Of a DNA stretch of 64,000 nt, positions 7,914-42,940 are shown in pieces. This DNA comes from Rhodococcus pseudokoreensis. Its GTDB lineage: Bacteria; Actinomycetota; Actinomycetes; Mycobacteriales; Mycobacteriaceae. The stretch's first letter is position 1. Each line of letters starts with the position of its first letter. The notes under the pieces were generated by a model. It was not told where the DNA came from. It did not search any database and saw only the letters and a list, made by a program, of their open reading frames with translations. The stretch spans positions 4,836,001 to 4,900,000 of the forward strand of contig NZ_CP070619.1 in NCBI RefSeq assembly GCF_017068395.1, read 5' to 3'. The translations under genes were made by a program, and so were the position numbers.

Positions 7914-9377
7914 ATGACCGTCTTGCGCCTTGGGCAGTGCCCGGATGCGACGCGCGAGCTCATCGGGGGGAAGGCGTTCAGCATCAACTCGATGCTCACC
8001 CTCGGTCTCCCTGTTCCGCCGGCGTTCGTACTCGGAACCGACGAATGCACTCGGTACTACGCCTCGGATCGGAAACTCGCCGAGGACGTACTGGCAGAGC
8101 TGAGGAGCGGTATCGCGTGTCTCGAAAGTACGCTCGGACGTACCTTCGGGGCGACGAACAAGCCGTTGCTCGTCTCTGTTCGCTCCGGTGCGCCACGCAG
8201 CATGCCGGGGATGATGGATACGGTTCTCAACCTCGGCATCAACGACAGCGTCGAAAAGGCACTCCGCGAGGAGACCTCCGATGCGGAGTATGCCGCCGAT
8301 ACCCACCGCCGTTTCAGGGAGCAGTTCCGCAAGGTCGTCGGGAGCGACCCGTCCCCGGAACCCTGGGATCAGCTCGAGGCCGCGGTTGCCGCCGTGTTCG
8401 ATTCCTGGCATTCCCCGAGAGCGGTGGCGTATCGCCGCCACCACGGCATCTCCGATGACGGGGGCACCGCCGTCACGGTTCAGGCCATGGTCTTCGGAAA
8501 TTTGGACGACCATTCGGGAACTGGTGTGTTGTTCACGCGTGACCCCGTCACCGCTCAGTCGGCACCGCTGGGTGAATGGCTCCCCCGTGGGCAAGGTGAG
8601 GACGTCGTGTCCGGCCGTTGTACACCCCTGACCCTCGGTCACCTCGCCGGAAACATGCCGGACGTCCACAGGCAATTGATGGATTCGGCGTCGCTGTTGG
8701 AGCGCACGTTCTGCGACGTGCAGGACATCGAGTTCACCGTCGAGTCCGGGCACCTGTGGCTGCTGCAAACGCGGTCGGCAAAACGCTCGGCGACCGCGGC
8801 CGTGCACCATGCCGTCACCTTCGAGAAGGAAGGTATCGTCACGCCGGAGGGGGCACTGTCCATGATCAGTCCCGACCAACTGAGCGCCTTCCTCCGCCCG
8901 CATCTCTCGCCCACCGCTCGTATCGGTGCGACAGTCCTCGCTCGCGGCGAAGTCGCATGCCCCGGGGTGGTCACCGGCATCGTTGTCGGCACCGCCGATG
9001 AGGCGGAGGAGATGGCGGAGCAGGGAATCGACGTCATCCTCGCGCGCCCGACAACCGATCCGGACGACGTCCATGGAATCCTCGCCGCCAAGGCAATCAT
9101 CACGGAGATCGGCGGCGCCACCTCCCATGCCGCCGTGGTCAGCCGCGAATTCAACAGGGCCTGTGTCGTCGGCTGCGGTGAAGGCTCGCTCATGGACCTG
9201 GTAGGCCGGAACGTCACGGTCGACGCCACATCGGGCGAGATTCTCGACGGAATTCTCGAAGTAGAGGTCCCGTCGAAGGACACGCACCCCGATCTGCAGG
9301 TAGTCACCCAGTGGCTCGCCGCCAGCGAAACGGGAAATGACAACCCGCTCAACAAGATCCTCGCGGCAGCCCACTAG
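7914..9377 (+). CDS. PPDK-like phosphotransferase: ATP-grasp plus phosphohistidine domain, no PEP domain
   Basis: A 487-residue protein matching the first two domains of pyruvate phosphate dikinase. The ATP-grasp part holds LIGGKAFSINSMLTLGLPVPPAF, then SVRSGAPRSMPGMMDTVLNLG, GVLFTRDPVTAQ and the GQGEDVVSG loop. The swivelling domain carries GGATSHAAVVSR with phospho-accepting His405. The protein stops where the PEP/pyruvate TIM barrel (about 350 residues) should begin. It can therefore take phosphate from ATP onto His405, but no acceptor site for pyruvate is visible. A strong RBS (AAGGA) precedes ATG 7914. I infer that it feeds the six acceptor proteins encoded downstream, like the ATP subunit of phenylphosphate synthase. 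Confidence 0.9.
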   Translation: MTVLRLGQCPDATRELIGGKAFSINSMLTLGLPVPPAFVLGTDECTRYYASDRKLAEDVLAELRSGIACLESTLGRTFGATNKPLLVSVRSGAPRSMPGMMDTVLNLGINDSVEKALREETSDAEYAADTHRRFREQFRKVVGSDPSPEPWDQLEAAVAAVFDSWHSPRAVAYRRHHGISDDGGTAVTVQAMVFGNLDDHSGTGVLFTRDPVTAQSAPLGEWLPRGQGEDVVSGRCTPLTLGHLAGNMPDVHRQLMDSASLLERTFCDVQDIEFTVESGHLWLLQTRSAKRSATAAVHHAVTFEKEGIVTPEGALSMISPDQLSAFLRPHLSPTARIGATVLARGEVACPGVVTGIVVGTADEAEEMAEQGIDVILARPTTDPDDVHGILAAKAIITEIGGATSHAAVVSREFNRACVVGCGEGSLMDLVGRNVTVDATSGEILDGILEVEVPSKDTHPDLQVVTQWLAASETGNDNPLNKILAAAH

Positions 9378-9406
9378 TCGCACATGTCTGCTCGCTCAGT
9401 CGGTCC

Positions 9407-9443
9407 AGGGCGGTTCCGCGCGAATTCCGCGCGGAACCGCCCT
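9407..9443 (+). terminator. Strong hairpin after the dikinase-like gene
   Basis: A perfect 16-bp stem (AGGGCGGTTCCGCGCG and its complement) with a 5-base AATTC loop lies 30 bp after the dikinase stop. No T-run follows. It ends three bases before the proposed start of the thioesterase gene. Confidence 0.75.
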
Positions 9444-9446
9444 GCT

Positions 9447-9893: not shown

Positions 9894-9916
9894 CCACGCA
9901 CGGGCGGCGGAGCCGC

Positions 9917-12451: not shown

Positions 12452-13468
12452 CTACCGTTGTGCCTCCACTCCGCCTTCCGCGGGAACTCGAGGAGGAATG
12501 TAGTTGGGCCGGAATGGCGGCCGACCGAGCAAGGTGTCGAGGATGAATGCGAACACCGCCACACCGAATGCGATGGTCAACATGCCGAGCAATTGTGTGG
12601 GCAGCCAAGGATAGTCGGCGTTGACAGCGATCCAGGACGGCATCGCGATGAAACCGTAGACGGCGGTGACAGACAGGGGGGTGATCAGGAGCATCGATAT
12701 CGACTTCCAACCGCGTAGCTGCTCGCGGTAACGGTAGGCGATCGCTGCGGCCAGGAACACGCCGACCGAGTTGCACGGAATCCACCACCACGGCAGCTGC
12801 GAGATGATGACGAGCGGTTGGTTCCCGTAGTAGTGGTAGACCCCCATGCTCAATAGAATCTCCTCGAACATGACGGAACTGGCCGCTGCACCTGCCCACA
12901 TCAACCAGATCATCTTGGTGCGAGGGTTACTCTCGAGCACTTTGTAGATGAAGATCATGAAGGCGCCGTATCCGAACCAACCCGCGACGATCCACCAGGG
13001 CATCTCCCGGCCGAGGATGGTGTAGGCGTGGTTCGACTCGCTCCAGGGGAAGTACACCGCGCCGATGACGTCGTAGAACACCTCGGGTATGCAGATCACC
13101 GCTCCACTGAGTGCGAGCATCAGCGGGAGCAGGGACCCGGTTCGCCTGATCTCGCGGATTCCGAGACCGACACCGATGAGTCCTACTGCAGTCATGCAGA
13201 CGGTGGCGATGATGTTGTTCGTCGACATGTACGGCGTGTTGTGTGGCGGCGTGGGGATCCCGAACTCGGGATCTATTGTGAAGTCCGCACTTCCGAGGAC
13301 GGGTCCCTGCCGGAGCGCGGTGATGATCAGGGCGGCGACGACTGCGATGACGACCGCAGTCGCAATGATGGCCTTGCCTTTCGGCGTGATCCCGTCGGAC
13401 GAGGACTCGTCGTGCCTTTCGGGGGGTGTGGTTCGTTGCGTGACGCCTTTCGGCGGCGTTGAAACCAT
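12452..13468 (-). CDS. Multi-pass membrane protein, AveC-like family
   Basis: A 338-residue integral membrane protein with about seven hydrophobic segments after a charged N-terminus (ATAVVIAVVAALIITAL, IIATVCMTAVGLIGVGLG, LLPLMLALSGAVICIPEVFY and others). Blocks EVFYDVIGAVYFPWSES and WWIVAGWFGYGAFMIFIYK match what I recall of the AveC spirocyclase-like family of mycobacteria and rhodococci. AveC acts on avermectin spiroketal chemistry; the activity of catabolic-cluster homologues is unknown. ATG 13468 is chosen for its GAGAGG; an upstream ATG at 13513 lacks an RBS. Possible roles are substrate transport or a membrane cyclase/dehydratase. Confidence 0.72.
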   Translation of the reverse strand: MVSTPPKGVTQRTTPPERHDESSSDGITPKGKAIIATAVVIAVVAALIITALRQGPVLGSADFTIDPEFGIPTPPHNTPYMSTNNIIATVCMTAVGLIGVGLGIREIRRTGSLLPLMLALSGAVICIPEVFYDVIGAVYFPWSESNHAYTILGREMPWWIVAGWFGYGAFMIFIYKVLESNPRTKMIWLMWAGAAASSVMFEEILLSMGVYHYYGNQPLVIISQLPWWWIPCNSVGVFLAAAIAYRYREQLRGWKSISMLLITPLSVTAVYGFIAMPSWIAVNADYPWLPTQLLGMLTIAFGVAVFAFILDTLLGRPPFRPNYIPPRVPAEGGVEAQR

Positions 13469-13783: not shown

Positions 13784-15412
13784 TTGTACACCAACGTCAC
13801 CGACCCGATTCGCGGAACGTCTGAACCTGATCGGTATTGGACCAGCACCAACCTGGGCGAGGCCTGCCCCGAGGTCATGTCACCCATGTGCTGGAGTGTG
13901 TGGGAACGGTCAGCTGAGCTGGGTTGGCTCTATTCGATGTACGCGTTCGGTGTGCTCCCGAAGAAGAAGGTCACCGTCTCCCCCGATGTAAACGATCGCG
14001 GCCTGTCCTGCTTCTTCGGAAGGCAAGCGCTGAACGTCGACGCCATCAAAAAGATCATGTCGGCACTGCCTGGCGTCGATGCCGACGACTTCGAGCGTGA
14101 CCTCATGGGAAGCGTGCGACCGGATGCGCCGCAGTTCAAGTCGAGCTACGCCCGTGTTCCCGTGCTCATGTTCAAGGCGCCGTACGCTCTGCTGCGAACC
14201 GGCCCGAGGTTGAAATCTCTGCACGACGAGATGCACGAGCGTTGGACGGCGTCGGTCTACCCGCGGAAAGAATCGAACAGCGAGCCCATCGATGTTCTGG
14301 TGCAAGCGCGCGATCAGTTCCAGCGCATCTTTTCCGTTCACTGTGTATGGAGGTTCGTGTTCCAGGGCGCGCAGAGCGCGGTGGCACAAGCCGCCGAAAA
14401 GGCCGGAGATGCAACACTTGCCGATCAACTGCTGTCGGGGGTGGGAGATGTCAACGAGACGAGGATGGCTGACGACCTCTGGCGATTGGGTCAGGACGAG
14501 CTGACCGAGGGCGAGTTCCTGGAGAGCTGGGGCTACCACGGACCGAATGAAGGAAATCCCTACACCACGGTGTGGCGTGAGAACCCTGCACCCATCCGTG
14601 CATTGGCGGCGGCATACGCACAGCGATCCGAACGACCCGCGGTGCGCGCAGCGCGCGCCCGGGAAGTCGGCATCGAGGCGGAACGCCGTCTTCTCGCCGC
14701 GACTCCATGGTCTCGCCGTCCGGCGACGCGTTGGTTGGTGCATCGGATGCGAAATATCATCCGAACGCTGCAGGTCGGGAAGGCGGCGTATCTCATGGCA
14801 ATTGACGCGGCTCGAGCGGCGGCGCGAAACCTCGGCGCGCAACTGGTGGAACGCGGCGTGCTCCAGCAGGTCGACGACATCTTCTTCGTCACGATCGAGG
14901 AATGCCAGGAATTGGTTTGCGGGCGCGTACCGAACGTGCAGGAGGTCGTCGAGGTCCGCCGCGCGACCCGTGCCGAGTACAAGGCAATGGCGCTTCCCGT
15001 CGCCTTTCGAGGCATGCCGGAACCGCTCGTGGGCGCCGTCGAGGTCGACGTTGTGGATGTCACCGAATTGTCCGGCGCTGCGAGCGGCGGCGGAAGCGTG
15101 GAGGGTCGGGCGCGGGTTGTGGTCGATCCGGACCAGGAAATCGAACTCGACGCGGGCGATGTTCTGGTGTGTCGATTCACCGACCCGAGCTGGGCTCCCC
15201 TGATGGCGTTGGCTGACGCCCTGGTGATCGACATTGGCGGGTCGGCGAGCCACGGGGCGGTGGTCGCCCGCGAACTGGGCATTCCGTTCGTGATCGGCAC
15301 GCAGAGCGGGACGAGGGTCATCCACGATGGGGATCACATCCGGGTGGATGGTCCCGCGAACCTGGTCAGCGTGCTCACACGCGCGAAGGCGGCGGAAACC
15401 GCGACCGCGTGA
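13784..15412 (+). CDS. Phosphohistidine-domain phosphotransferase subunit, copy 1
   Basis: A 542-residue protein from TTG 13784 (GAGGAGAAG upstream), chosen because its paralog at 35240 begins at the matching residue. Residues 1-410 form a helical domain with DPIRGTSEPDRYW, VMSPMCWSVWE, FFGRQALNVD and WGYHGPNEGNPYTTVWREN; this layout matches the substrate-binding region of rifampin phosphotransferase. Residues 430-540 form the swivelling PEP-utiliser domain with phospho-accepting His490 in SASHGAVVARELGIPF. There is no ATP-grasp domain, so phosphate must come from another protein, presumably the one at 7914. The substrate hydroxyl is unknown. Closest in-window relative: the copy at 35240. Confidence 0.87.
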   Translation: MYTNVTDPIRGTSEPDRYWTSTNLGEACPEVMSPMCWSVWERSAELGWLYSMYAFGVLPKKKVTVSPDVNDRGLSCFFGRQALNVDAIKKIMSALPGVDADDFERDLMGSVRPDAPQFKSSYARVPVLMFKAPYALLRTGPRLKSLHDEMHERWTASVYPRKESNSEPIDVLVQARDQFQRIFSVHCVWRFVFQGAQSAVAQAAEKAGDATLADQLLSGVGDVNETRMADDLWRLGQDELTEGEFLESWGYHGPNEGNPYTTVWRENPAPIRALAAAYAQRSERPAVRAARAREVGIEAERRLLAATPWSRRPATRWLVHRMRNIIRTLQVGKAAYLMAIDAARAAARNLGAQLVERGVLQQVDDIFFVTIEECQELVCGRVPNVQEVVEVRRATRAEYKAMALPVAFRGMPEPLVGAVEVDVVDVTELSGAASGGGSVEGRARVVVDPDQEIELDAGDVLVCRFTDPSWAPLMALADALVIDIGGSASHGAVVARELGIPFVIGTQSGTRVIHDGDHIRVDGPANLVSVLTRAKAAETATA

Positions 15413-15536: not shown

Positions 15537-16847
15537 TCAGCGCGAGGGCGACGAGAAGGTAATCGGAAGCGATTCGATGCCGTGCAGCACGAAGCTCCGG
15601 TGGAACGTCACTTCCTCGTCTGGGTCGGCCAGAGCGATGGAATGGCAACGCTCCAGCAGAACCGTCAGTGCCGCCTTGGACTCCATCTTGGCCAAATTCA
15701 TACCCAGGCAGGAGTGCTCGCCGCGACCGAACGTCAGGTGGCGGGCCCGTGCGGTGTCGAGATCGACTTCGTCGGGCTCGCTGTACACCGATGGATCTCG
15801 GTTTGCGGAACCGGTAACCAGGTAGATGAGGCCGTCGGCAGGAATGCGGGTGCCTCCGACCTCCACCTCGTCGACGGCGACCCGCCAGATTCCTTGTACG
15901 GGCGGTTCCAGGCGAAGCACCTCGTCGAGGAAGTTGGTGATCTTGTCGTGATCCTCACGCAGGGATTCCTGCAACGCGGGATCCTTGGCGAGCATCCAGA
16001 GTGCACTGGTCAGCAGGTTGGTCGTCGTTTCGTTGCCGGCGACCAGGAATTGCACCAGCATCTGGAGTAACTCGGCGAGAGTCAGGGGAGCTTCGCCATC
16101 GAGTCGCGCAGCCAGCAGGTCGCTCAAGAGATCGTCGACAGGATGCTCGCGCCGCCGATCGAGTTCCTCGGTGAAGTAATCGTAGAAGGCGTCCACCTGG
16201 TCGAAGATCTCGATGATGGCATTCGTGTCGTGTGAGAGTGCGCCGACGCCACGGGTGAAGGCGTTGGACCACTCTTTGAAGGTCGCCATGTGGGAAGGCG
16301 GCACCCCGAGAAGGGTCGCAATTACTGTCATCGGAATGGGCATGCTGAAGCCGGCGACGACGTCGGTGGGGCCGTCGGCGGCGAAGTTGTCGATGAGCTG
16401 ATTGGTCAGCTCTTTCACGGCGCCGTCGAGTTCTGCTACCCGGCGAGGCGTGAAAGCGGCATTGACAAGTGAGCGCTGACGCTTGTGCAAGGGCGGATCG
16501 GAGAACAGCAGGACGCGCGATTTGCTCAGTTCGATGCGCCGGGCCGCCTGCTGCCGGGTGCGCTCCGGGAGATCGGCATTCTGCAGTATCTGCTGGGCGA
16601 TACCTGATACCGAACTGGGCCCGCTGGCCATGCGGTTCGAGAACCGGGTGGCATCACGCAACACATCCAGAACGTCTTCGTGCCGCGTGACAATCCAAGC
16701 GCCCAACTGCTCATTGTATGAGACCGGGTCGCTGTCGCGCTGGGCGGCGTATGCACCATAGGGGCACCGAACGACGTCAGGACGCAGCGCTAGCAGGTCA
16801 TCGAATGTGGCGGCGGGGCAGGTTGTTGTGTCCGCTCGATCTGTCAC
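15537..16847 (-). CDS. Cytochrome P450 (first)
   Basis: A 436-residue soluble bacterial P450 from GTG 16847, with GAGGAG six bases upstream. The I-helix oxygen-binding motif is VAGNETTTN, the ExxR pair is in EVLRLEP, and the heme-thiolate Cys380 is in FGRGEHSCLG. It hydroxylates or epoxidises an organic substrate with electrons from a ferredoxin and reductase. A reductase with its own 2Fe-2S centre lies directly upstream at 16939 and a ferredoxin gene is at 43972. The second P450 at 38023 shares long blocks (PMTVIA, LGVPPS, AFTRGVGAL), so the two are paralogs. Confidence 0.95.
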   Translation of the reverse strand: MTDRADTTTCPAATFDDLLALRPDVVRCPYGAYAAQRDSDPVSYNEQLGAWIVTRHEDVLDVLRDATRFSNRMASGPSSVSGIAQQILQNADLPERTRQQAARRIELSKSRVLLFSDPPLHKRQRSLVNAAFTPRRVAELDGAVKELTNQLIDNFAADGPTDVVAGFSMPIPMTVIATLLGVPPSHMATFKEWSNAFTRGVGALSHDTNAIIEIFDQVDAFYDYFTEELDRRREHPVDDLLSDLLAARLDGEAPLTLAELLQMLVQFLVAGNETTTNLLTSALWMLAKDPALQESLREDHDKITNFLDEVLRLEPPVQGIWRVAVDEVEVGGTRIPADGLIYLVTGSANRDPSVYSEPDEVDLDTARARHLTFGRGEHSCLGMNLAKMESKAALTVLLERCHSIALADPDEEVTFHRSFVLHGIESLPITFSSPSR

Positions 16848-17896: not shown

Positions 17897-18793
17897 TCAG
17901 CCCTTCGCGGCTTCGACAAGCGGCTTCAGGTTTGTGAGAACCTCGAGCCATCCTGTTGATGTTGTGATTTCGGAGCAGAAGTTGGTCTCGATGATGACTC
18001 CTTCGAGGTCTGCGGCAACGCACTCCGCAACTCGGGTGGTCATTTCGTCCACGGTCATTCGTTTGCCGGCGGTGGATTGCTGAGCGAGTCGGTAGATCGC
18101 TCCGACCGGGTTCTTGTCCTGCGGCCGTTGACTGTTGATGTCCTCGAGGATACCCACCACATTACTGATGGGGATGGAACCGGGATTCCACAGGTCGAAG
18201 TCGCGAGCAGTTCGTGCGAGGCCTGCTTTGGAGTACATGCCGGACATCAAGCGGGGGATCCGTGTGGGCTTCGGCTGCATGATGGCCGGTCCGATGTCGA
18301 AGAACGCGCCATGGTGTTCCACCGGATCGTCGCTCCAGCACGCACGGAGAGCGGGAATGAAGTCATCCATACGCTTGCCTCGCGTACGGGGGTCGACTCC
18401 GACGGCCCGATGTTCTTCCTCGGACCATCCCACGCTCAGGCCTACGACGGACAGGCGGCCTTCGCTGATTCGGTCGACGGTGGCAAGTCGGTTGGCCAAT
18501 TGCGCAGGCCAGTGATTTCCGCCGACGAGAATACTGGTTCCCAGTTGCAGGCGATCCGTCCAGGTGGCAACGGCGGCGAGCAACTCGGTGGGCGCCCACA
18601 CTGAACGGTAGACATCGGGCTGGTCGGTTGCGCTGCCGCCGTAATCGCCCGACTGCTGGAGTGCGTAGAGGAAGTGGTCCTGCACCCATACGTTGTCGAA
18701 GCCCATGTCGTCGGCTTGCTGAACGAAGTCACGGATCAACGACGCCGTCACGACCGGCCCCAGCTGTGGCAGTGTGAGTCCAATTGTTGTCAC
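17897..18793 (-). CDS. LLM-class (luciferase-like) F420/flavin-dependent oxidoreductase
   Basis: A 298-residue TIM-barrel protein of the bacterial luciferase family. It has GLTLPQLGP at the start, DDMGFDNVWVQDHF, QLGTSILVGGNHWPAQLANRLATVDRISEGRLSVVGLSVGWSEEEHRAVGVDPRTRGKRMDDF, and a C-terminal effector region. The GWSEEEHRAVGVD-type segment is common in F420-dependent actinobacterial members. GTG 18793 overlaps the upstream stop by four bases (GTGA), and GGAG-rich sequence precedes it. The family reduces or oxidises secondary alcohols, enones or sulfur compounds; F420 or FMN use cannot be settled here. Confidence 0.87.
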   Translation of the reverse strand: MTTIGLTLPQLGPVVTASLIRDFVQQADDMGFDNVWVQDHFLYALQQSGDYGGSATDQPDVYRSVWAPTELLAAVATWTDRLQLGTSILVGGNHWPAQLANRLATVDRISEGRLSVVGLSVGWSEEEHRAVGVDPRTRGKRMDDFIPALRACWSDDPVEHHGAFFDIGPAIMQPKPTRIPRLMSGMYSKAGLARTARDFDLWNPGSIPISNVVGILEDINSQRPQDKNPVGAIYRLAQQSTAGKRMTVDEMTTRVAECVAADLEGVIIETNFCSEITTSTGWLEVLTNLKPLVEAAKG

Positions 18794-23928: not shown

Positions 23929-24016
23929 TGGTCACCTCGTGAGGGCAGGAGCGGATAATCGAAGCATCGATAGTCTAACTCTAGATGTTATTGCCGTTCG
24001 GTGCTACGGTGCGGGA
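23929..24016. promoter_or_regulatory. Divergent promoter with shared 14-mer and ATAGTC element
   Basis: GATAATCGAAGCAT (23954-23967) is identical to 10739-10752. ATAGTC follows at 23970-23975, then TAACTCTAGATG, whose reverse strand contains the TAGAGT seen at other -10 positions. Confidence 0.62.
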
Positions 24017-29958: not shown

Positions 29959-30575
29959 GAGTCCACTCTCATTTCCGGGCTGTCGGGGGCGGGACGCCTT
30001 GGCGTAGCCAGTACAGGTTTGACGACGAAGTCCTCGATCCAAGCCCGGATGTCACCGTCGATCAACTCCGGCCGTGTCACGAAGACATAATGGTTGGTCA
30101 TGAACCAGTGCAGAATCCGGGCGTCGGGCATGTCGGAATCCAGTTCCTCCCGACGACGACCGTGGTCGAGTATGGGTTGCCAATAATCGACTTCCATCGA
30201 CATGAGATTGCTGTCGTCGGCGACGAGGCGGGCAGCTACTTCTCCCAGTTCTTCCGAAAAGATCACGGAGAGCAGTTCGTTTCTCATTGTGAGTTCGGCG
30301 CCGACCAGTAGGGACTCGACAATCAGATCACGGACAGGACCGGACACGGGTATCCGATGCCGGCGCTGATTGTTGACCGCCAGAATTTCGGCCTCGAGGA
30401 GCGCGCGAACGAGCTCCTCTTTGTTGGCGAAATACCGGTACAGGTTGGGCCTTGCAATCCCGACCTGCCCCGCGATGTCGTCCATCCGCGTTCCCTCGAA
30501 GCCCCGCTCCCTCAGCGTCACGCGTGCGGCCTCGATGATTGCCTGGCGACGTGTATTCACTTCCCGTCCGCCCAT
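29955..30575 (-). CDS. TetR-family transcriptional regulator
   Basis: 206 residues. The N-terminal TetR helix-turn-helix is unmistakable: NTRRQAIIEAARVTLRERGF, then MDDIAGQVGIARPNLYRYFANKEELVRALL. The C-terminal ligand domain is of the actinobacterial catabolic type (ELIDGDIRAWIEDFVVKPVL). It lies between the 344-residue gene (one-base gap) and copy 3 (four-base overlap). The palindromes GATAC-N15-GTATC in both arms of the divergent promoter 31612-32108 are its most likely operators, giving autoregulation and joint control of both modules. Confidence 0.92.
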   Translation of the reverse strand: MGGREVNTRRQAIIEAARVTLRERGFEGTRMDDIAGQVGIARPNLYRYFANKEELVRALLEAEILAVNNQRRHRIPVSGPVRDLIVESLLVGAELTMRNELLSVIFSEELGEVAARLVADDSNLMSMEVDYWQPILDHGRRREELDSDMPDARILHWFMTNHYVFVTRPELIDGDIRAWIEDFVVKPVLATPRRPAPDSPEMRVDS

Positions 30576-30576
30576 C

Positions 30577-31611
30577 TCAATCCGTGATCCTCTTGTCTGC
30601 GGGAATGCGGTCGCGGAAGTACTCGAACCAGCCATATCCGAACTCGACCGTGCGTGGGTCACCCCGGAGCGTGGTGATTCCGGCCATCGACCCATAGCCG
30701 TCCCAGCGTGAGGCCTCGAAGTCGTCCATGTGACCCGTCTTATCGGAGCGGTACTCCCATACCTGTCCCGCCGACTCCTGTTGTGCGTAATGGATCTGGC
30801 CGGATTCTTCGATGCGGTAGCGGCAGTCGAGCTCATTGTTCGACAACACGACGGTACCTACGCCGTCGAGGTCCTCGACCACGGCCGCCACACACATTCC
30901 CCGACTGCCACGGACCAGCGTGCCCCATTGCATCGTCCCGTCATCCAGTAGGTTCCCGAACGCGTTGAAGCTGTGCTCGAGTTCTGTGAAGAACTTCGCT
31001 TCCTTCGGCTCGACCCCATGCCTCCAGTAGCCCGTTTCGACGACCATGATTCCGCGGCACGGCCGGCCGAGCACCGTTCCGGAAACGCGGCAGGGGTACT
31101 CGGAGTAGAACCATGGATCCGTCGGCATGGGCGCATATCCCTGCACGCCCAGAGCGCCTGGCACACCCTCGAGATGCAGGAGGTCCCCCTCGTCCCACAG
31201 TACCGAGGTGTCTGTCAGTTCCACTGTCAGTGGCCGTTCATCGCGCGGCGCAACCCCTTCACGCGTGCGTTGCAACACGGGTTCCGACCATCGCCGAAGC
31301 TCGGGTGAGCTGAAGCGGCGGAGCTCACCTCTGGCGCTCTGGCTCGTCTCCGGTCGAAGGCTGAGGGCTCCGAACTCGTCGCACATTATGTAGAGTCCGC
31401 CGGTCATGGAACCGATGTACTTCCGCTCCACGACATAGGAATTGCCATCGTCGTCGCCGAGGTATGCATAGGTGTATTGGACCTGCATTCCTAATCCGTG
31501 ATAGGTCGACGTCGGCAACATTGTCGCCACCCGTGGCCGGAATGGTCCTACGACGGTATGGAAGTCGAACTCCCCGAATTCGGGGGTTACTGCCTCTGCT
31601 CTTGCCGTCAC
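30577..31611 (-). CDS. Unknown protein, 344 residues, paralog of the 32109 gene
   Basis: No known family recognised. GTG 31611 has AGGA eight bases upstream. The sequence is rich in aromatic residues and predicted strands, with blocks VERKYIGSMTGGLYIM, SARGELRRF, RRWSEPVLQRT and VVETGYWRHGVEPKEAKFF. All four recur in the 336-residue protein across the promoter. No signal peptide or membrane segment is seen. It is the first gene of the operon with TetR and acceptor copy 3. The constant pairing with a phosphohistidine protein suggests it acts on, or presents, the same substrate. Confidence 0.75.
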   Translation of the reverse strand: MTARAEAVTPEFGEFDFHTVVGPFRPRVATMLPTSTYHGLGMQVQYTYAYLGDDDGNSYVVERKYIGSMTGGLYIMCDEFGALSLRPETSQSARGELRRFSSPELRRWSEPVLQRTREGVAPRDERPLTVELTDTSVLWDEGDLLHLEGVPGALGVQGYAPMPTDPWFYSEYPCRVSGTVLGRPCRGIMVVETGYWRHGVEPKEAKFFTELEHSFNAFGNLLDDGTMQWGTLVRGSRGMCVAAVVEDLDGVGTVVLSNNELDCRYRIEESGQIHYAQQESAGQVWEYRSDKTGHMDDFEASRWDGYGSMAGITTLRGDPRTVEFGYGWFEYFRDRIPADKRITD

Positions 31612-32108: not shown

Positions 32109-33119
32109 ATGACTTCGTACAAACTCGGAGACTTCGGTGCGCATCCGGTCGTAGGTGCCTTCGATCCGGACCCGGAGGATATGGAACTGCTCGCGTCGAA
32201 GCACGGGATAGGCCTGCAGGCGACGTGGCTTTACGGGTTCTTCCGAGATGCCGACGGACTGACCTATTGCGCCGAACGCAAGTTCGTCGGGTCCTTGACT
32301 TCGGGCTGCTTCGTGATGACCCAGCATGGGGACGCGTCAAACGAACTCAACGTGCACAAGGACTCGGGCCGCAGTGCACGTGGCGAGTTGCGACGTGTTC
32401 TCGAGGGAAAGACACGCCGCTGGTCCGACCCGGTTTTCCAGCGTCTGCCGAAAGACGTTCTGCCGAACGGTGAGCAACCGATGGAATTGGAGTTCACTCG
32501 CGAGAGACTCGTCTACAACGAAGGTGACATTCTTTCACTCGAGGGTCCTTCCGTCGGTCGAGGAGTGCAATTCTTCATCCCCTCGCTCGACCGCCCGTTG
32601 CTGTACACCTCTACGTGCTTCTGGATGGAGGGCGAGTTCCAGGGCAAGCACGTTTCCGGACCGATCTGGTTCGACAACGCCTACTGGAACCACGGCCTGG
32701 AATGGAAGGAGTATGGATACTTCAACGACTTCCAGATCATGTGGCACGTGTTTTGCAACAAGTTCGACGATGGGTCATTCGAATGGGGCCACCTGGTCTC
32801 GGGTCGCGAGGGATTCAGCCCGGGAGTCGTCGTGCAGAGCACGGGTGAGGTCACCGCTACCAGTAAGACCGATCCCACCTTCGAGCTGGCGGACGGTGCG
32901 TGGCCGACGAAGACGACGTGGCTGGTGGACGACAAGACATACACGTTCGAGGGTCCGAATACGGGACGTATGACCGAATTCTCGGAGTCTCGGTGGGCAA
33001 ATTATCGAGCGCAACTCGGTCAGACCCGCCTCGACGGTGACACGCGGACCCTTGCAGACGGGCTCACGTGGAACGAAGGGTTCACCAATCGCATCGGACC
33101 TGACGGCAAACCGGCATGA
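32109..33119 (+). CDS. Unknown protein, 336 residues, paralog of the 30577 gene
   Basis: Family unknown to me. It shares with the 344-residue protein AERKFVGSLTSGCFVM, SARGELRRV, RRWSDPVFQRL and FDNAYWNHGLEWKEYGYF in the same order, so the two are ancient paralogs. It is rich in Trp, Tyr and Gly with alternating hydrophobic strands, consistent with a lipocalin-like or jelly-roll fold. GGGAGAG precedes ATG 32109. It overlaps acceptor copy 4 by four bases (ATGA), so both proteins are probably made in fixed ratio. Confidence 0.75.
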   Translation: MTSYKLGDFGAHPVVGAFDPDPEDMELLASKHGIGLQATWLYGFFRDADGLTYCAERKFVGSLTSGCFVMTQHGDASNELNVHKDSGRSARGELRRVLEGKTRRWSDPVFQRLPKDVLPNGEQPMELEFTRERLVYNEGDILSLEGPSVGRGVQFFIPSLDRPLLYTSTCFWMEGEFQGKHVSGPIWFDNAYWNHGLEWKEYGYFNDFQIMWHVFCNKFDDGSFEWGHLVSGREGFSPGVVVQSTGEVTATSKTDPTFELADGAWPTKTTWLVDDKTYTFEGPNTGRMTEFSESRWANYRAQLGQTRLDGDTRTLADGLTWNEGFTNRIGPDGKPA

Positions 33120-34753
33120 GTGCCCTCACTTCTGCTACGGAAGAGCTGTTCGACACGGTGCACGGCACCTCCGAGCCGAACCGATTCTGGACACTCGCAA
33201 ATACCGGCGAGGTGACTCCGGGCATCCTTGCCGCCCTGGACTGGAGTGTCTGGGACAACTTTGAACTCGCCGTCCGGCAGGCATGGTGCGACCTCGGAAT
33301 CATGAACAAGCGTGACGTGTACCTGCCAACCGATCCCAACCTGCGGCAGACGTACGTCTTCTACGGCCGGCACGCGCTCAATGTCGACTACGTCCGCAAC
33401 TTCATGGGCTCGGTGCCGGGTGCATCTCCCAACGACTTCGAGCGTGACGTGTGCGGCACAGTGAGAGAGGGGATGCCAGACGAGAAGGGCTCGTACCATC
33501 GTGCGCCGGCGATGCTCAGGAAGCTCCCCGGGGCTTACAGGCGGACCAACTCGCAGCTTCAGCAGCTTCATCACGAGATTCTGACGTGGTGGCGCGACAA
33601 TGTACTGCATGGTGTCGGAAGCAACGATCCGCTCTCTGACTTGCACGCGGCCGCACAGTGTTTCCGGCGGACCATGAGCATGCACATCAGGGTGCGCACC
33701 TTCCTGCAAGGTGTTCAGGGCGGTCTGGTGTCGCTGGCCGAGAAGGCGGGAAGGCCCGACCTCGCGTTGTCCGTATTCGCTGGATTCGGCGAAGTCAGTG
33801 AATCTGCTTTGGCAGAGGACATCTGGGCGCTCGGGTCCGGCAGTCTCGACCTCTCGACCTTCATCGAGCGACATGGCTACTACGGTCCCAATGAGGGGAT
33901 GGTATGGACATCGTCATGGAGGGAAGACCCGACACCGTTACATGCCATCGCCCGTTCCGTGGCCGCTCGCCAGTCGAGTGATGTGGCCGCTCGTGCGCAG
34001 GCGGCGGCAGCGGCGCGCGAGGACGCGGAACGTGAACTTCTCGCAGGGCTGTCGCCACTGCGGCGGCGCCTGGCGCGTATCCTGTTTCGCCAGGCCGCCA
34101 CTCAGGTGCGCAACCTGGAACTCGGAAAGGCCACCTACCATATCGCGCTCGATGGCTGCCGCGCCGCAGCGCGCCGAGTAGGAGACGACCTTAGGGGCCG
34201 AGGCGTCATCGACGATCCCGAAGATGTGTTCTTCCTCAGTATCGAAGAACTGGCGGAGCCCCCGCTACGCGCGAGGGAACTCATCGCCTTCCGTCGACAG
34301 CGTCGAAAGGAGTACGCCGCAATCGAGTTGCCGATGACCTTCCACGGCGTACCCGAGCCGGCGTCGACATCGCCGATCGATGTAGACGTCACGGAAATCG
34401 AGGGAATCGGTGCCAGCAACGGCGTCGTGGAGGGACGCGCACGGGTCGTCAACGACGCTGACACCGAGGGCCTCTTCGAGGAGGCGGGCGACATCCTCGT
34501 ATGCCGCACGACCAACCCTAGTTGGACCCCTCTGTTCACTCTCGTCGATGCAGTCGTGATCGACATCGGCAGCACTGCGAGCCACGGCGCCATCGTTGCG
34601 AGAGAACTCGGTATTCCGTGTGTTATCAACACCGGCAGCGGCTCGAAGGTTATTCGCTCTGGTGACCGAATTCGAGTTGACGGCACCCGTGGGCTGGTGA
34701 CGATCGTCGACCGCGCGACGAATCTCGGCGACAGTCCCCCCAGGAAGACCTGA
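33116..34753 (+). CDS. Phosphohistidine-domain phosphotransferase subunit, copy 4
   Basis: 545 residues, translationally coupled to the 336-residue gene. Shorter-subclass features: TVHGTSEPNRFWTLANTGEVTPGILAALDWSVW, FYGRHALNVDYVRNFMGSVPG, and HGYYGPNEGMVWTSSWREDPTP in the helical core. The swivelling domain has phospho-accepting His490 in STASHGAIVARELGIPCV. No ATP-grasp domain is present. Compared with copies 1 and 5 it is clearly diverged in the N-terminal third, where substrate specificity is expected to lie. Confidence 0.87.
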   Translation: MSALTSATEELFDTVHGTSEPNRFWTLANTGEVTPGILAALDWSVWDNFELAVRQAWCDLGIMNKRDVYLPTDPNLRQTYVFYGRHALNVDYVRNFMGSVPGASPNDFERDVCGTVREGMPDEKGSYHRAPAMLRKLPGAYRRTNSQLQQLHHEILTWWRDNVLHGVGSNDPLSDLHAAAQCFRRTMSMHIRVRTFLQGVQGGLVSLAEKAGRPDLALSVFAGFGEVSESALAEDIWALGSGSLDLSTFIERHGYYGPNEGMVWTSSWREDPTPLHAIARSVAARQSSDVAARAQAAAAAREDAERELLAGLSPLRRRLARILFRQAATQVRNLELGKATYHIALDGCRAAARRVGDDLRGRGVIDDPEDVFFLSIEELAEPPLRARELIAFRRQRRKEYAAIELPMTFHGVPEPASTSPIDVDVTEIEGIGASNGVVEGRARVVNDADTEGLFEEAGDILVCRTTNPSWTPLFTLVDAVVIDIGSTASHGAIVARELGIPCVINTGSGSKVIRSGDRIRVDGTRGLVTIVDRATNLGDSPPRKT

Positions 34754-35239: not shown

Positions 35240-36868
35240 GTGTCAGCTACAGTTTCCGACCCGATTCGCGGAACTTCGGAGCCAGATCGGTACTGGACAT
35301 GCACGAACCTCGGTGAAGCATGCCCGGATGTCATGTCGCCGATGTGCTGGAGTATCTGGGGAGACTCGGCGGAGTGGTCATGGCTCTACTCGATGTATGC
35401 GTTCGGGGTCATCCCGAAGAAGGCGCTCGTGGTTTCTCCCGACATGAACGACCGTGGCCTCTCGTGCTTCTACGGGCGGCAGGCATTCAATGTCGACGCG
35501 ATCAAAGAGACCATGTCGTCGCTGCCCGGTGTCAGTCCGGATGACTTCGAGCGTGACCTCATGGGCAGCGTGCGGCCCGACGCCAAGAAGATCGAAAGTT
35601 CGAACCGTCGGCTGCCGGTGGTGCTGGCCAAGGCGCCGGGCACGGCCATCCTTACCGGTAAGCGGATCCGAAAGCTGCACAACCGAATGTATGCCAAGTG
35701 GGTCAAGGTCGTGTACGAAAGCGATCCAGTGTCGCAGGAACGTCCCGCGATCGAGCGGCTGCTCGAAGCGCGGCAAGACTTTGTCGACGTCTTCTCGGTT
35801 CACTGTGTTGTGCGCTTCCTGTTCCAGGGCGGACAGAGTGGAATCGCTGCTGCGGCGGCGAAAGCAGGCGACGCGGCTCTCACTGCCGATCTACTCGCGG
35901 GGGTGGGTGGCGTTCTCGAGACGACCATGACGGACGACCTGTGGCGGCTGGGCAATCACGAGATCTCGGAGGACGACTTCCTACGGAAGTGGGGCTACCA
36001 CGGCCCGAATGAGGGGAATCCGTACACGACGTCGTGGCGCGAGGACCCCACTCCGATTCGTTACTTGGCTGCGGCGTCGGCGGTCAGGGAGCGGCCCAAC
36101 GACCGAGCTGCGCGATCGAATGCCGCAGCCAAAAAGGCAGAACAGCGACTCCTCGCCGGGACCCCTGTACTACAGCGACCTGCGATCCGGTGGCTTCTGA
36201 GGCGGATGCAGAACACCATCCGGACACTCCAGATCGGCAAGGCCGGGTACCTCATGGCGCTCGACGAGGCTCGCGCGGCCGTGAAGGCCTTTGGCGCCGA
36301 GCGGGTCCAGCTCGGCCAGTTCGACGAGCCGGACGACGCGTTCTTCTTGACGGTCGAGGAGTGCCAGCAACTGGCCGCGGGTGAACTCCTGAACGTCCGT
36401 GAGATCGTGAGCGTACGGCGTGCGACTCGGATGGAGTACAAGAACATGGACTTGCCACTGTCGTTCGTCGGAATGCCGACATTGACACAAAAGTCCGACT
36501 GGTCCGCCCCCGACATTCTCGAGGTCACCGGCGCAGCGAGTGGCGGCGGCATTATCGAGGGCCGAGCTCGAATTATCGAGGAGGCCGACGACGATATCGA
36601 TCTCGATCCCGGTGACGTTCTCGTGTGCCGGTTCACCGATCCCGGTTGGGCGCCGCTGATGGCACTGGCCGACGCGCTCGTCATCGATATCGGAACCTCC
36701 GCGAGCCACGGTGCGGTCGTCGCCCGTGAACTCGGCATTCCGTTCGTCATCGGAACCGGAAACGGCACCCGCGTCCTGCGTGAAGGTGACCGCATTCTCG
36801 TCGACGGCACAACAGCTGTGGTCAAGGTGCTCGAACGGGATATCGGTCGAGAATTGAATCTGGCCTGA
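35240..36868 (+). CDS. Phosphohistidine-domain phosphotransferase subunit, copy 5
   Basis: 542 residues from GTG 35240 with AGGAG upstream, the same length as copy 1. Shared blocks include DPIRGTSEPDRYWT, TNLGEACP, VMSPMCWS, LYSMYAFGV, MNDRGLSCFYGRQAFNVDAI and WGYHGPNEGNPYTTSWRED. The mobile domain has His490 in SASHGAVVARELGIPFVIGT, followed by a GDRILVDG loop. No ATP-grasp domain. The coding region and promoter match copy 1 so well that a duplication of the whole unit is the simplest explanation. Confidence 0.88.
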   Translation: MSATVSDPIRGTSEPDRYWTCTNLGEACPDVMSPMCWSIWGDSAEWSWLYSMYAFGVIPKKALVVSPDMNDRGLSCFYGRQAFNVDAIKETMSSLPGVSPDDFERDLMGSVRPDAKKIESSNRRLPVVLAKAPGTAILTGKRIRKLHNRMYAKWVKVVYESDPVSQERPAIERLLEARQDFVDVFSVHCVVRFLFQGGQSGIAAAAAKAGDAALTADLLAGVGGVLETTMTDDLWRLGNHEISEDDFLRKWGYHGPNEGNPYTTSWREDPTPIRYLAAASAVRERPNDRAARSNAAAKKAEQRLLAGTPVLQRPAIRWLLRRMQNTIRTLQIGKAGYLMALDEARAAVKAFGAERVQLGQFDEPDDAFFLTVEECQQLAAGELLNVREIVSVRRATRMEYKNMDLPLSFVGMPTLTQKSDWSAPDILEVTGAASGGGIIEGRARIIEEADDDIDLDPGDVLVCRFTDPGWAPLMALADALVIDIGTSASHGAVVARELGIPFVIGTGNGTRVLREGDRILVDGTTAVVKVLERDIGRELNLA

Positions 36869-41088: not shown

Positions 41089-41129
41089 GTTTTCTCCTCT
41101 GGACAGGTTGGTTCAAAACTCTGTGATTC

Positions 41130-41159
41130 AAATTACTCGCGGGCTCGACTATCAGTCAA
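41130..41159 (-). promoter_or_regulatory. Promoter of the Rieske operon
   Basis: On the minus strand TTGACT (41159-41154) and TAATTT (41135-41130) are separated by 18 bases. The spacer contains GATAGTC, so an ATAGTC element lies between -35 and -10, a typical repressor position. Confidence 0.68.
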
Positions 41160-41203
41160 GAGACTTTTGCCGGTCGCTACGCGAAGTGCGCAGATACGAG
41201 CCT

Positions 41204-42940
41204 CTACGTGAGAATTTCGACCGTTCCGGCCGCTCCATCTACTCGAAGTCGTTGCCCGGTGACGATCTTCTGTAACACGTTTCGCACGGACATGACGCAG
41301 GCAATGCCGAGTTCGCGACTGATCACCGCCGCGTGGCTGCCCTCCGCGCCGACCTGGCAAACCACCGCTCCGGCGACCATCAACAACGGTGTCCACGACG
41401 GATCGGTGACCGCACACACCAGAATCTCTCCGGGGTCGAGGTCTTCGACCTCGGCCAGATCGGCGACGACGCGCGCGGGGCCCTCGGCGACACCGGGAGC
41501 CGCTCCGATCCCCGCCAGCGATGTTCCGGGTACCGAACCGGTGGCCGCCGACGCGGCGGCCCGGAGCGGCCAGGTGTCGATCGGGGCGATCGGTGTGCCG
41601 TTCATGACGATGGGCGGTGGTACACGACGACGAAGGTCGTCGAATTCGTCGGCGCGAACACGCAACTCCGCGTTGAGGTCTGCTTCACCGGTGACGATCT
41701 CGTCCAGCTCGGCGTCGAGTGCGTAGAAAATGTCGAGGGGCGAAGACAGTGCGTGCCGGGTTGCGAGTCGCTGGCCCAGCTCCACGAGCGGGAGCCGCAC
41801 TTCGTGAACAGCGCGGACGAGTGCGTCCTTGATGGATTCACGCATCCGGAAGAAGCGCTGCCCCGACGAGATGGCCGCAGTGAGAGTGGCAGCCGTATCC
41901 TCGTCCGAGGCCATTCGGATCAACTCTGCAACCGCGTGCTCCCGTAGAAGGCTGCCACTGGACGACCTCGACTCCGGTGAATGCTCGTCATCCTGGTGAC
42001 GAATGCGGTCGATCATCTCGAGTACGACTTCGGGGCGCATTTCCCAGGACTGCGAAGCGAGGTCGTACTCATTGGGACTGCGATGACCGTAGTCGACTAG
42101 GAAATCGTCGAACGAGTGTCGGAACGCATCGAGATCGGGACCGGACTCATTCGCCATGCGCTTCGGCAGATCTGCAGGGCCGGCGTCGAATGCCGCGGTG
42201 AGCGAGGGGGACCGAGACACCATCCGTGACAGTTCCCAGACGCGGCGACTCGTGTCGGCCGACTCTACGTCACCCAGAGACGTGAAGGCGGCAACTGCGG
42301 CATCCGGGCGGCCCAGAGCCGAAGCGATCGCGTGCGTGACACCGGGCCCGACCGACGCGCTGATCGTGACCTGTATGTAGACATCCCACGCGCGGCGCAA
42401 ATAGGTGGCACACGCCATTCGCGCATGCGCGAGAAGTTCGAGGTCCGTCAGCGCATGCAGGTCTGGCCGCGACGACCGCCACCCCCGTACTTCATTCAAA
42501 AAACTCTCTGCGTACGAAATTCGGTCCTGCGTGAGCGCTGCGTTCATCGTGGCTCCGAGCGCCTCGGTCCGATCCTCGTCGGTGTCCCTCGGGTCAGCCA
42601 CATACGGGGGAACATCGGGGTCCGAACCGAAGTATGTTCGGTCGATGTCACCGGGCTGCGCTCCTGGAGCTCGAACACCGAACACCCGTCCGACGCTGAC
42701 CTGGTTGTAGAAGTAGCCACCCCAGCAGCCGTAGACCTCGGCGATCGGCTCGCGAAACTCCTCACGGCGGAACCCTCCGAGATGGACCCAGGCATCGACC
42801 GTGCCAGGAATCGCACCTTGTTCCCACGCCAGCGTCCATGTGAGTGGGGGGAAGGGGGCTGGGCCAACCTCGTCCGCGTTCGCCCGCGTATACAGTGGAA
42901 AGCGTGTGCTCGACGGTGTATCAGTGATCCACTGCTTCAT
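41204..42940 (-). CDS. Phosphohistidine-domain phosphotransferase subunit, copy 6
   Basis: 578 residues from ATG 42940 with AAGGAA upstream. Longer subclass: FPLYTRANADEVGPAPFPPLTWTL at the start and FLVDYGHRSPNEYDLASQSWEM in the helical core, the latter nearly identical in pattern to the rifampin phosphotransferase YGHR block. The mobile domain has GIGAAPGVAEGPARVV and His536 in GSHAAVISRELGIACV, where the residue before Ser is Gly rather than Ala, Ser or Thr. No ATP-grasp domain. It follows MeaB by 13 bases, tying it to the B12 mutase operon. Confidence 0.87.
   Translation of the reverse strand: MKQWITDTPSSTRFPLYTRANADEVGPAPFPPLTWTLAWEQGAIPGTVDAWVHLGGFRREEFREPIAEVYGCWGGYFYNQVSVGRVFGVRAPGAQPGDIDRTYFGSDPDVPPYVADPRDTDEDRTEALGATMNAALTQDRISYAESFLNEVRGWRSSRPDLHALTDLELLAHARMACATYLRRAWDVYIQVTISASVGPGVTHAIASALGRPDAAVAAFTSLGDVESADTSRRVWELSRMVSRSPSLTAAFDAGPADLPKRMANESGPDLDAFRHSFDDFLVDYGHRSPNEYDLASQSWEMRPEVVLEMIDRIRHQDDEHSPESRSSSGSLLREHAVAELIRMASDEDTAATLTAAISSGQRFFRMRESIKDALVRAVHEVRLPLVELGQRLATRHALSSPLDIFYALDAELDEIVTGEADLNAELRVRADEFDDLRRRVPPPIVMNGTPIAPIDTWPLRAAASAATGSVPGTSLAGIGAAPGVAEGPARVVADLAEVEDLDPGEILVCAVTDPSWTPLLMVAGAVVCQVGAEGSHAAVISRELGIACVMSVRNVLQKIVTGQRLRVDGAAGTVEILT

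What the first reader, a model, noticed from the sequence alone, without database searches (positions are those of the whole stretch)
7914..42940. A split, multi-acceptor phosphotransferase array: one ATP-histidine donor and six acceptor proteins
The protein at 7914 has the ATP-grasp and phosphohistidine domains of pyruvate phosphate dikinase. Six other proteins (13784, 26452, 28303, 33116, 35240, 41204) have a phosphohistidine domain behind a helical substrate-like domain and no ATP site. All six keep the His (490, 538, 497, 490, 490, 536). Rifampin phosphotransferase has all three parts in one chain, and phenylphosphate synthase of Thauera splits them into separate subunits. Here one donor appears to serve six substrate-specific acceptors within a single oxidative pathway. 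That would make phosphorylation of several hydroxylated intermediates, perhaps as leaving groups, a repeated step of catabolism. I know of no described pathway with this design.
Basis: partly seen in the sequence, partly recalled or inferred. Interest (0 to 1): 0.92.

Follow-up and report, generated by a model that had tools for sequence, protein, structure and literature searches.

The report
One phosphate donor, six acceptor kinases
A soil Rhodococcus appears to use one ATP-fed protein to hand phosphate to six different substrate-binding partner proteins, a shared-donor design that may also explain what the tuberculosis protein VadK does.

Summary

No ATP-grasp-only subunit was found in this genome. 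In other genomes a VadK-like donor abuts an acceptor gene. Five acceptor loci without a local ATP donor carry instead a PPDK-like protein whose ATP-grasp domain is not recognised, with the third gene beside it. In 32 genomes of one genus (inferred Mycobacterium), all 20 with VadK encode an ATP-grasp-less acceptor. None of the 12 without VadK does; three of those have a relative that has lost the His motif.

Two-component small-molecule dikinases (HpeHI, CreHI, PpsAB) are published. New here: a donor with its own phosphohistidine, its apparent sharing by several acceptors, and the third protein. Phosphotransfer, substrates and the 'leaving group' role are untested. Four of the six acceptors lack RPH's essential Arg666.

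The parts
7222..7866 (+). F3: third component, winged-helix N-terminus plus helical C-terminus, 214 aa; taken to be the Rv1126c family by its place beside VadK genes
   Evidence: 47 bp upstream of the donor; near 32 of 33 VadK-like donors; in one open frame with the donor in two genomes; invariant His186 and His193; model pLDDT 95.2
7914..9377 (+). D1: donor, truncated PPDK (ATP-grasp plus His405 swivel domain, no PEP barrel), VadK family
   Evidence: NCBIfam NF004531/PRK05878 753 bits, cut-off 456; PPDK_N and PEP-utilizers
13784..15412 (+). A1: acceptor, group I, His490, motif LQ..K
26452..28191 (+). A2: acceptor, group II, His538, RPH motif RE..K kept (R371 E372 K375)
28303..29958 (-). A3: acceptor, group I, His497, motif LE..K
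   Evidence: overlaps TetR gene by 4 bp
33116..34753 (+). A4: acceptor, group I, His490, motif LE..K
   Evidence: overlaps upstream gene 32109-33119 by 4 bp
35240..36868 (+). A5: acceptor, group I, His490, motif LQ..K
   Evidence: AlphaFold model 92.8 pLDDT matches RPH
41204..42940 (-). A6: acceptor, group II, His536, RPH motif RE..K kept
   Evidence: 13 bp from MeaB gene
32109..33119 (+). unknown 336-aa protein coupled to A4, no Pfam match
   Evidence: 38 homologues; beside an A4-like gene in Nocardia, Rhodococcus and Pseudonocardia loci
30577..31611 (-). unknown 344-aa protein beside TetR and A3
12452..13468 (-). unknown 338-aa protein upstream of A1
29955..30575 (-). TetR regulator
15537..16847 (-). 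cytochrome P450
16939..17892 (-). 2Fe-2S flavin oxidoreductase
17897..18793 (-). luciferase-like monooxygenase
19810..21168 (+). FAD monooxygenase
22792..23928 (-). Rv3169-family protein
   Evidence: NF053593 320.7 bits
24041..25282 (+). APH-type phosphotransferase
25276..26373 (+). Rv3169-family protein, upstream of A2
   Evidence: NF053593 296.8 bits
38023..39234 (-). cytochrome P450
39697..41088 (-). Rieske oxygenase large subunit
42954..43949 (-). MeaB GTPase
44539..46562 (+). B12-dependent acyl-CoA mutase, small and large subunits, nearest solved relative 2-hydroxyisobutyryl-CoA mutase
46559..50255 (+). acyl-CoA ligase and E1 dehydrogenase alpha/beta

Best explanation
A modular small-molecule phosphorylation system with a shared donor. 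Step 1 (shown in the VadK homologue, inferred here): D1 binds ATP in its ATP-grasp domain and loads a phosphate onto its own His405. Step 2 (inferred): the phosphate passes from His405 to the swivel histidine of any of the acceptors A1-A6, with F3 as obligate partner, either as a scaffold or as an intermediate carrier through its invariant His186/His193. Step 3 (inferred from RPH): the loaded acceptor swivel turns to its own helical substrate domain and phosphorylates a hydroxyl. Each acceptor brings its own substrate specificity, so one donor serves six reactions in a cluster of oxygenases, dehydrogenases and CoA ligases. The confidence below is for 'D1 feeds the six acceptors'. The His-to-His route (about 0.6) and the role of phosphate as a leaving group (about 0.3) are less certain.
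For: (1) The genome search finds five PPDK_N proteins: a PEP synthase, a PPDK relative with no PEP domain found (L040) and three VadK-like proteins, but no ATP-grasp-only subunit. The same model finds ATP-grasp-only ORFs beside an acceptor-type gene in two other genomes of the genus at E 7e-99 and 1e-105 (373 and 492 aa). (2) In an order-wide sample of 397 genomes, 20 had a hit at the acceptor threshold. I dropped one RPH-like single chain (G040) and two whose acceptor lies in one open frame with an ATP-grasp domain (G201, G278). Of the 17 left, 12 have a VadK-like donor. Adding the PEP-type loci, an intact donor lies within 20 kb in 14 of 17. In G428 the two genes overlap by about 4 bases; in G062, G235, G239 and G403 the matched parts lie 65-137 bp apart. 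(3) In named genomes the donor and F3 lie near group I acceptors in N. veterana (four acceptors, one cut by the locus end, in 21.6 kb), Mycolicibacterium vanbaalenii, N. brevicatena and P. acidicola. (4) Five acceptor loci without a local PPDK_N match (G173, G122, G065, G427 C45, G221 C50) have a PPDK-like protein instead, all five with F3 beside it; in the three sequences printed the His is kept and the PEP-domain motifs are readable. The constant part is the donor histidine plus F3, not the ATP site. (5) Acceptor fold = RPH 318-867; invariant Lys334 aligns with RPH Lys670 and His490 with His825. (6) Mycobacterial VadK autophosphorylates His422 and needs it in vivo (PMC13400623). (7) In genus g32, VadK and His-bearing ATP-grasp-less acceptors go together, 20 of 20 against 0 of 12; in three VadK-less genomes a Rv2047c-like protein has lost the His motif.
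Against: No transfer was observed; everything after step 1 is inferred. In RPH the Arg666-Glu667 pair is essential for the second transfer (PMC4844700). A2 and A6 keep it (RE..K), but A1, A3, A4 and A5 have Leu at the Arg position, so four of the six may transfer by another arrangement or not at all. Three of 17 stand-alone-acceptor genomes lack an intact donor within 20 kb: G165 has it on another contig, G252 has a donor in two pieces, and G059 cannot be judged (4.1 kb contig). One VadK-like donor of 33 (L253) has no F3 found nearby. A weaker F3 relative (open frames of 185-220 aa) occurs in all 12 Rhodococcus genomes searched, including one (G019) with no donor or acceptor found. Many of the linked loci are from close relatives, so the counts are not independent. 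The published model for VadK is regulation of methylcitrate-cycle enzymes.
Confidence: 0.72

Rival explanations
1. Direct docking as in HpeHI: each acceptor swivel docks on the donor's ATP-grasp domain and takes the phosphate from ATP itself; the donor's own His domain is a relic or an off-switch.
For: This is the published mechanism of PpsAB/HpeHI, where the ATP subunit presents ATP to the His of the other subunit (PMC12167813). ATP-grasp-only ORFs beside an acceptor-type gene exist in the same genus (L175, L176).
Against: Those ATP-grasp ORFs have no His domain in the same frame, whereas all three VadK-like donors of this genome keep the full motif. VadK loads its own His and needs it in vivo. 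PEP-type donors have no recognised ATP-grasp domain but keep the His in the three sequences printed.
Confidence: 0.25
2. D1 and F3 form a regulatory pair: D1 phosphorylates proteins (or F3, a winged-helix regulator with invariant histidines), and the acceptors are charged by something else.
For: F3 has a MarR-like winged helix. VadK is published as a regulatory kinase of the methylcitrate cycle. Some PTS-controlled regulators carry phosphorylated His (recalled).
Against: F3 shares one open frame with the donor in two genomes, and Rv1126c improves VadK solubility when co-expressed, which suggests a protein partner. No other candidate donor was found near the acceptors in this genome. Donor presence tracks acceptor presence.
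Confidence: 0.15
3. The acceptors are not kinases of pathway intermediates but inactivate or trap compounds, like RPH with rifampin or as suggested for HpeHI scavenging.
For: Fold and motif are those of RPH; the HpeHI authors suggest trapping of diffusible substrates.
Against: Six paralogues among oxygenases, a B12 mutase and CoA ligases, with recurring neighbours in several genera, look like steps of one pathway.
Confidence: 0.2
4. The six are partly decayed paralogues; only A2 and A6 transfer phosphate.
For: Arg666 is replaced by Leu in A1, A3, A4, A5.
Against: His, Lys670 equivalent and Glu/Gln667 equivalent are kept; group I recurs as long open genes in several genera, with one broken A4 copy seen (G006).
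Confidence: 0.08

Closest known systems
Two-component small-molecule dikinases HpeHI, CreHI, PpsAB (PMC12167813; abstract, parts 1-2 of 6 and discussion read)
   Same: ATP-grasp on one protein, swivel His plus substrate domain on another; used in catabolism; ATP to AMP
   Different: HpeI is described as the ATP-grasp domain only. Acceptors here carry RPH-type or L-variant motifs; the two acceptor-type proteins beside ATP-grasp-only ORFs (L175, L176), which I take as HpeH-like by arrangement, do not. No third protein like F3 in the parts read.
VadK / Rv1127c of Mycobacterium tuberculosis and its operon partner Rv1126c (PMC13400623; parts 1-3 of 12, one model section and passages read)
   Same: Donor D1 belongs to the same NCBIfam family by model name; F3 sits where Rv1126c sits; PEP domain absent; His autophosphorylation shown there
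   Different: VadK is described as a regulator of methylcitrate enzymes; a term search of the paper found no mention of Rv2047c or of PEP-utilizing proteins
Rifampin phosphotransferase RPH (PMC4844700, passages read)
   Same: Acceptor fold over 459 residues, swivel His, Lys670
   Different: RPH has its ATP-grasp domain in the same chain
PEP-sugar phosphotransferase system (recalled)
   Same: One energised histidine protein shared by several specific acceptors
   Different: Only the swivel domain is shared with EI; no HPr-like match for F3 in the listed rows, which does not exclude one

Membership tests
VadK / PRK05878 truncated PPDK | NCBIfam NF004531 above cut-off | tested here: met
   753 bits against 456; that this model covers Rv1127c is recalled, the Rv1127c sequence was not compared
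VadK / PRK05878 truncated PPDK | ATP-grasp and His domain, no PEP/pyruvate barrel | tested here: met
   487 aa; only PPDK_N and PEP-utilizers found; alignment ends after the swivel
VadK / PRK05878 truncated PPDK | Rv1126c-family gene beside it | tested here: inconclusive
   F3 lies 47 bp upstream and its homologues lie beside VadK in g32 genomes, but the Rv1126c sequence itself was not compared
VadK / PRK05878 truncated PPDK | autophosphorylation of the His | not testable with these tools
   shown for the mycobacterial protein only (PMC13400623)
Canonical pyruvate phosphate dikinase | full length with PEP/pyruvate domain (TIGR01828) | tested here: not met
   452.5 bits against 843.45; stops after swivel
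RPH family (acceptors) | RIF-binding plus swivel fold | tested here: met
RPH family (acceptors) | ATP-grasp domain in the same chain | tested here: not met
   no PPDK_N match in any of the six
RPH family (acceptors) | Arg666-Glu667...Lys670 phosphotransfer motif | tested here: inconclusive
   kept in A2 and A6; Arg to Leu in A1, A3, A4, A5, Lys kept in all six
Two-component small-molecule dikinase (HpeHI, CreHI, PpsAB) | ATP site and substrate/His site on separate proteins | tested here: met
Two-component small-molecule dikinase (HpeHI, CreHI, PpsAB) | ATP subunit without His domain | tested here: not met
   D1 has His405 in a full motif
Two-component small-molecule dikinase (HpeHI, CreHI, PpsAB) | ATP-dependent phosphorylation of a small molecule | not testable with these tools
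   no assay

The most novel reading that the evidence does not exclude
A PTS-like phosphorelay for metabolites, widespread in actinobacteria: a PPDK-derived donor charged by ATP (VadK type) or by PEP (type with an unrecognised ATP-grasp domain) passes phosphate, with or through the Rv1126c-like protein F3, to several interchangeable RPH-like acceptors. In Mycobacterium tuberculosis the same system would be VadK, Rv1126c and Rv2047c, with the pks12 product or another lipid alcohol as the substrate; VadK would then be a metabolite kinase component and not only a regulator.
Probability: 0.35. Interest if true: 0.95.

Novelty: new variant of a known kind. Interest (0 to 1): 0.85.

Why it matters
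It would add a shared-donor layer to small-molecule dikinases: one charging enzyme, many substrate modules, with either ATP or PEP as fuel. It gives VadK, reported as needed for virulence in mice and without a shown phospho-acceptor in the parts I read, a specific predicted partner. In 32 genomes of one genus (inferred Mycobacterium), 20 of 20 with VadK encode an ATP-grasp-less acceptor (18 of them Rv2047c-like) and 0 of 12 without VadK encode one that keeps the His (related genomes, so not independent events). Published transposon data list rv1127c, rv2047c and pks12 with nearly the same condition pattern (PMC7058343 Table 1, passages). It also says where to look for the chemistry of a large uncharacterised oxidative gene cluster in Rhodococcus and Nocardia.

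Tried and rejected
ATP-grasp-only partner elsewhere in the genome: looked for with PF01326 and not found. That model does not detect the ATP-grasp region of the PEP-type donors, so a very diverged partner could be missed.

First reading of G201 and G278 as separate ATP-grasp and acceptor genes was wrong: both lie in one open frame, so I dropped them from the stand-alone count. They are also VadK-less members of genus g32 and are not among the 32 genomes counted there. First reading of a donor-F3 fusion in G209 was wrong: the two lie in different frames. The shared frames are in G322 and G220.

The order survey scored only 3 candidates per genome. It missed the VadK-like donors of G190 and G221 and under-scored those of G428 and G326, so donor presence was retaken with PF01326 in selected genomes and acceptor absence in the 12 VadK-less genomes with all candidates scored. 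Genomes outside those lists were not rechecked. The 12 VadK-less genomes are the members of this genus among the 20 match-free genomes that one search printed, not a random draw; 158 more match-free genomes were not printed.

One search turned up extra weak hits in three VadK-less genomes (G061, G128, G161): a diverged Rv2047c-like protein of 773-789 aa. I fetched and read these: the swivel end is there but the His motif is gone. The first alignment had used a wrong frame for two of them, corrected. In one search two Rv2047c-like genes (G087 from L252, G384) were likewise taken in a wrong frame and carry no information; five others worked.

F3 as a known fold: Foldseek gave no match at E 0.001 or below, and the second look covered mainly residues 1-102. 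HPr likeness was neither found nor excluded.

The substrate and the pathway product could not be worked out. The 336- and 344-aa proteins have no Pfam match and the 338-aa protein only a sub-threshold one. Paper searches with P450, PEP-utilizing and Rhodococcus or mutase terms gave nothing on this cluster in their listings. Searches for Rv2047c with mycoketide, Rv1126c, Rv1127c, the Rv gene set and phosphomycoketide with kinase listed no paper that I could see linking VadK with Rv2047c other than as two entries of one table (PMC7058343). I read four papers in part (PMC13400623, PMC7058343, PMC12167813, PMC4844700) and only the listings of the rest.

Rows left out of counts: L100 and L110 (VadK-like, only 1.5 kb flanks seen, no F3 in them), and L101, L102, L103, L105, L106, L107 and L114 (F3 present or in the same frame) are not in the 33; other loci of that call repeat donors already counted. 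The G026 C70 donor and the G326 donor were not fetched.

Full report
WHAT IS THERE. The window lies in a 9.87 Mb genome at C6:4836001-4900000. The donor at 7914-9377 and the six acceptors are real, at the given coordinates, with the given histidines. The acceptors fall into two groups. Group I is A1, A3, A4 and A5 (41-64% identical to each other); group II is A2 and A6, with A7 (L033) and A8 (L038) elsewhere in the genome (34-45% identical to A2).

DONOR. D1 scores 753 bits against the NCBIfam model PRK05878 (cut-off 456) and fails the full-length PPDK model (452 against 843). It ends after the swivel domain. I take this as the family of Rv1127c (recalled; its sequence was not compared), published as VadK: truncated PPDK, autophosphorylation of His422, kinase residues needed in vivo, proposed regulator of methylcitrate enzymes (PMC13400623; abstract, parts 1-3 of 12 and the model section read; passages). 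The genome has two more VadK-like proteins (L039, L037) and an 829-aa PPDK relative (L040) in which Pfam finds no PEP domain.

THIRD GENE. A 214-aa protein (F3, 7222-7866) sits 47 bp upstream of the donor. I take its family to be that of Rv1126c, the operon partner whose co-expression improves VadK solubility (PMC13400623 methods passage); this rests on its place beside VadK-like genes, not on a comparison with the Rv1126c sequence. It lies near 32 of 33 VadK-like donors whose neighbourhood (10-21.6 kb or more) was seen, the window's own included; the exception is L253. Several of the 33 are from close relatives. It is in one open frame with the donor in G322 and G220. Conversely, in 12 Rhodococcus genomes all 16 strong F3 genes (over 110 bits) lie within about 10 kb of a PPDK-derived protein. 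A weaker relative is found in all 12, donor or not. In 38 aligned F3 sequences (one locus counted twice) His186, Trp189, His193, Trp110, Gln111, Asn100, Phe96, Ala165, Gly172, Gly201 and Arg204 are invariant. The model has a MarR-like winged helix and a helical C-terminal half without a clear solved relative in the listed rows.

DOES THE DONOR SERVE THE ACCEPTORS? No ATP-grasp-only subunit was found in this genome, though the same search finds such ORFs in two relatives. In 397 genomes of the order, 20 had acceptor hits. G040 (RPH-like single chain) and G201 and G278 (fused) were dropped, leaving 17 genomes with stand-alone acceptors. Twelve have a VadK-like donor: G000, G062, G165, G235, G239, G403, G427, G158, G190, G408, G428, G221. 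G173, G065 and G122 do not; they, and second loci in G427 and G221, carry a PPDK-like protein that PF01326 does not recognise. In the three sequences printed (G173, G122, G065) it keeps the His motif and, read by eye against recalled PPDK motifs, the PEP site. F3 lies directly beside it in all five. In G252 the donor is in two separate pieces, one next to a transposase-like gene; G059 cannot be judged. Distances from match coordinates: 14 of 17 genomes have an intact donor within 20 kb of an acceptor, five of them within 140 bp (G062, G235, G239, G403, G428).

THE ARRAY RECURS. In Nocardia alni, N. veterana, N. brevicatena, Mycolicibacterium vanbaalenii BC8_1, Pseudonocardia acidicola, Amycolatopsis acididurans and Rhodococcus, related acceptors recur, mostly with recurring neighbours; D1-like and F3 genes are linked in L046, L048, L049 and L050. 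N. veterana has four acceptors, D1 and F3 in 21.6 kb. Eleven loci were returned and the donor was seen in four. Of the other seven, L051, L053 and L054 are short (3.7-12.4 kb); L045, L047, L052 and L055 (17-21.6 kb) show no donor within their span, though L055 shares its contig with L050, and the genome behind L047 (G026) has a D1-like donor on another contig.

MYCOBACTERIA. Genus g32 is unnamed; I infer Mycobacterium because the model PRK05865 (to which I recall that Rv2047c belongs) scores up to 1701 bits there. Of the 32 genomes tested, 20 have VadK (19, G326). Eighteen of these 20 carry a Rv2047c-like protein (over 800 bits) and the other two (G165, G235) a window-type acceptor. Twelve lack VadK, and none of them carries a stand-alone acceptor with a His domain. 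Three of the 12 (G061, G128, G161) carry a diverged Rv2047c-like protein of 773-789 aa whose His motif is gone, and G149, G061 and G128 carry acceptor-like stretches in one frame with an ATP-grasp domain. One-sided Fisher p for 20/20 against 0/12 is 4.4e-9, but the genomes are related and the 12 were those that a list happened to show. In G384, G326, G209 and G342 the Rv2047c-like gene lies 3-13 kb from VadK. Five Rv2047c-like proteins keep RE..R and the His. PMC7058343 Table 1 gives, over its six columns, rv1127c NE ES GD NE NE ES, rv2047c NE ES ES NE NE GD, and pks12 NE GD GD NE NE GD (passages), and says that rv2047c is in an operon with pks12. The link VadK to Rv2047c is my inference; a term search of the VadK paper found no mention of Rv2047c.

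MECHANISM. Shown elsewhere: VadK charges its own His from ATP. Inferred: transfer from donor His to acceptor His, with F3. The donor His is kept even where the ATP-grasp domain is no longer recognised, which argues against direct docking of the acceptor on the ATP site. Not tested: transfer, substrates, order of steps, leaving-group chemistry. The neighbours (two P450s, Rieske oxygenase, flavin monooxygenases, SnoaL/epoxide-hydrolase-like proteins, dehydrogenases, CoA ligases, B12 mutase, E1 dehydrogenase) fit oxidative breakdown of an alicyclic or branched compound, which I cannot name.

NOVELTY. Two-component dikinases are known, and so are VadK and RPH. A shared, His-charged, PPDK-derived donor for several RPH-like acceptors, with a constant third protein and an alternative PEP-type donor, was not seen in the listings of the searches made (open-licence papers only). 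I rate it a new variant of a known kind.

Noticed in passing
L036:10814-18487, L037:2572-4311, L040:10814-12710: Two other PPDK-derived proteins of this genome sit with a different kind of His-domain protein (132, 540, 238 and 138 aa, motif SHLAI/SHLGI) and an unknown family (398, 525, 478 aa, also part of the 540-aa one). The D3 cluster also has biotin carboxylase, carboxyltransferase and thiolase genes.
   Followed up: partly
L043:9589-10556: An F3-like gene overlaps a 122-aa lone His-swivel protein with no ATP-grasp or substrate domain.
   Followed up: no
L288, L289, L290: Rv2047c-like proteins of 773-789 aa in three VadK-less genomes have a swivel-like C-terminus without the His motif.
   Followed up: partly
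window 22792-26373: Two Rv3169-family proteins flank an APH-type phosphotransferase; the same pairing recurs near acceptors in related genomes and a similar pair lies at L034:5282-7466.
   Followed up: no
window 42954-46562: MeaB, a B12-binding small subunit and a mutase large subunit whose best solved relative is 2-hydroxyisobutyryl-CoA mutase; A6 lies 13 bp from MeaB.
   Followed up: partly
window 50647-51270: Histidine phosphatase superfamily protein near the array; relatives recur in PEP-type acceptor loci.
   Followed up: no
window 2091-3347: DDE transposase near the array; window GC (0.60-0.68 in 2 kb blocks) is mostly below the other fetched parts of the genome (0.645-0.701), which suggests an acquired island.
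   Followed up: no
L161:6262-9226 and L197: In G252 a VadK-like gene is present as two pieces about 244 kb apart, one next to a transposase-like gene.
   Followed up: no
L164:17018-18216: The A4 copy in a Rhodococcus opacus-like genome (G006) is broken into two frames.
   Followed up: no
acceptor N-terminal domain: The precomputed domain list of the protein database gives PF27448 besides PEP-utilizers for the acceptors; it did not come up in the Pfam copy searched here and its name was not seen.
   Followed up: no
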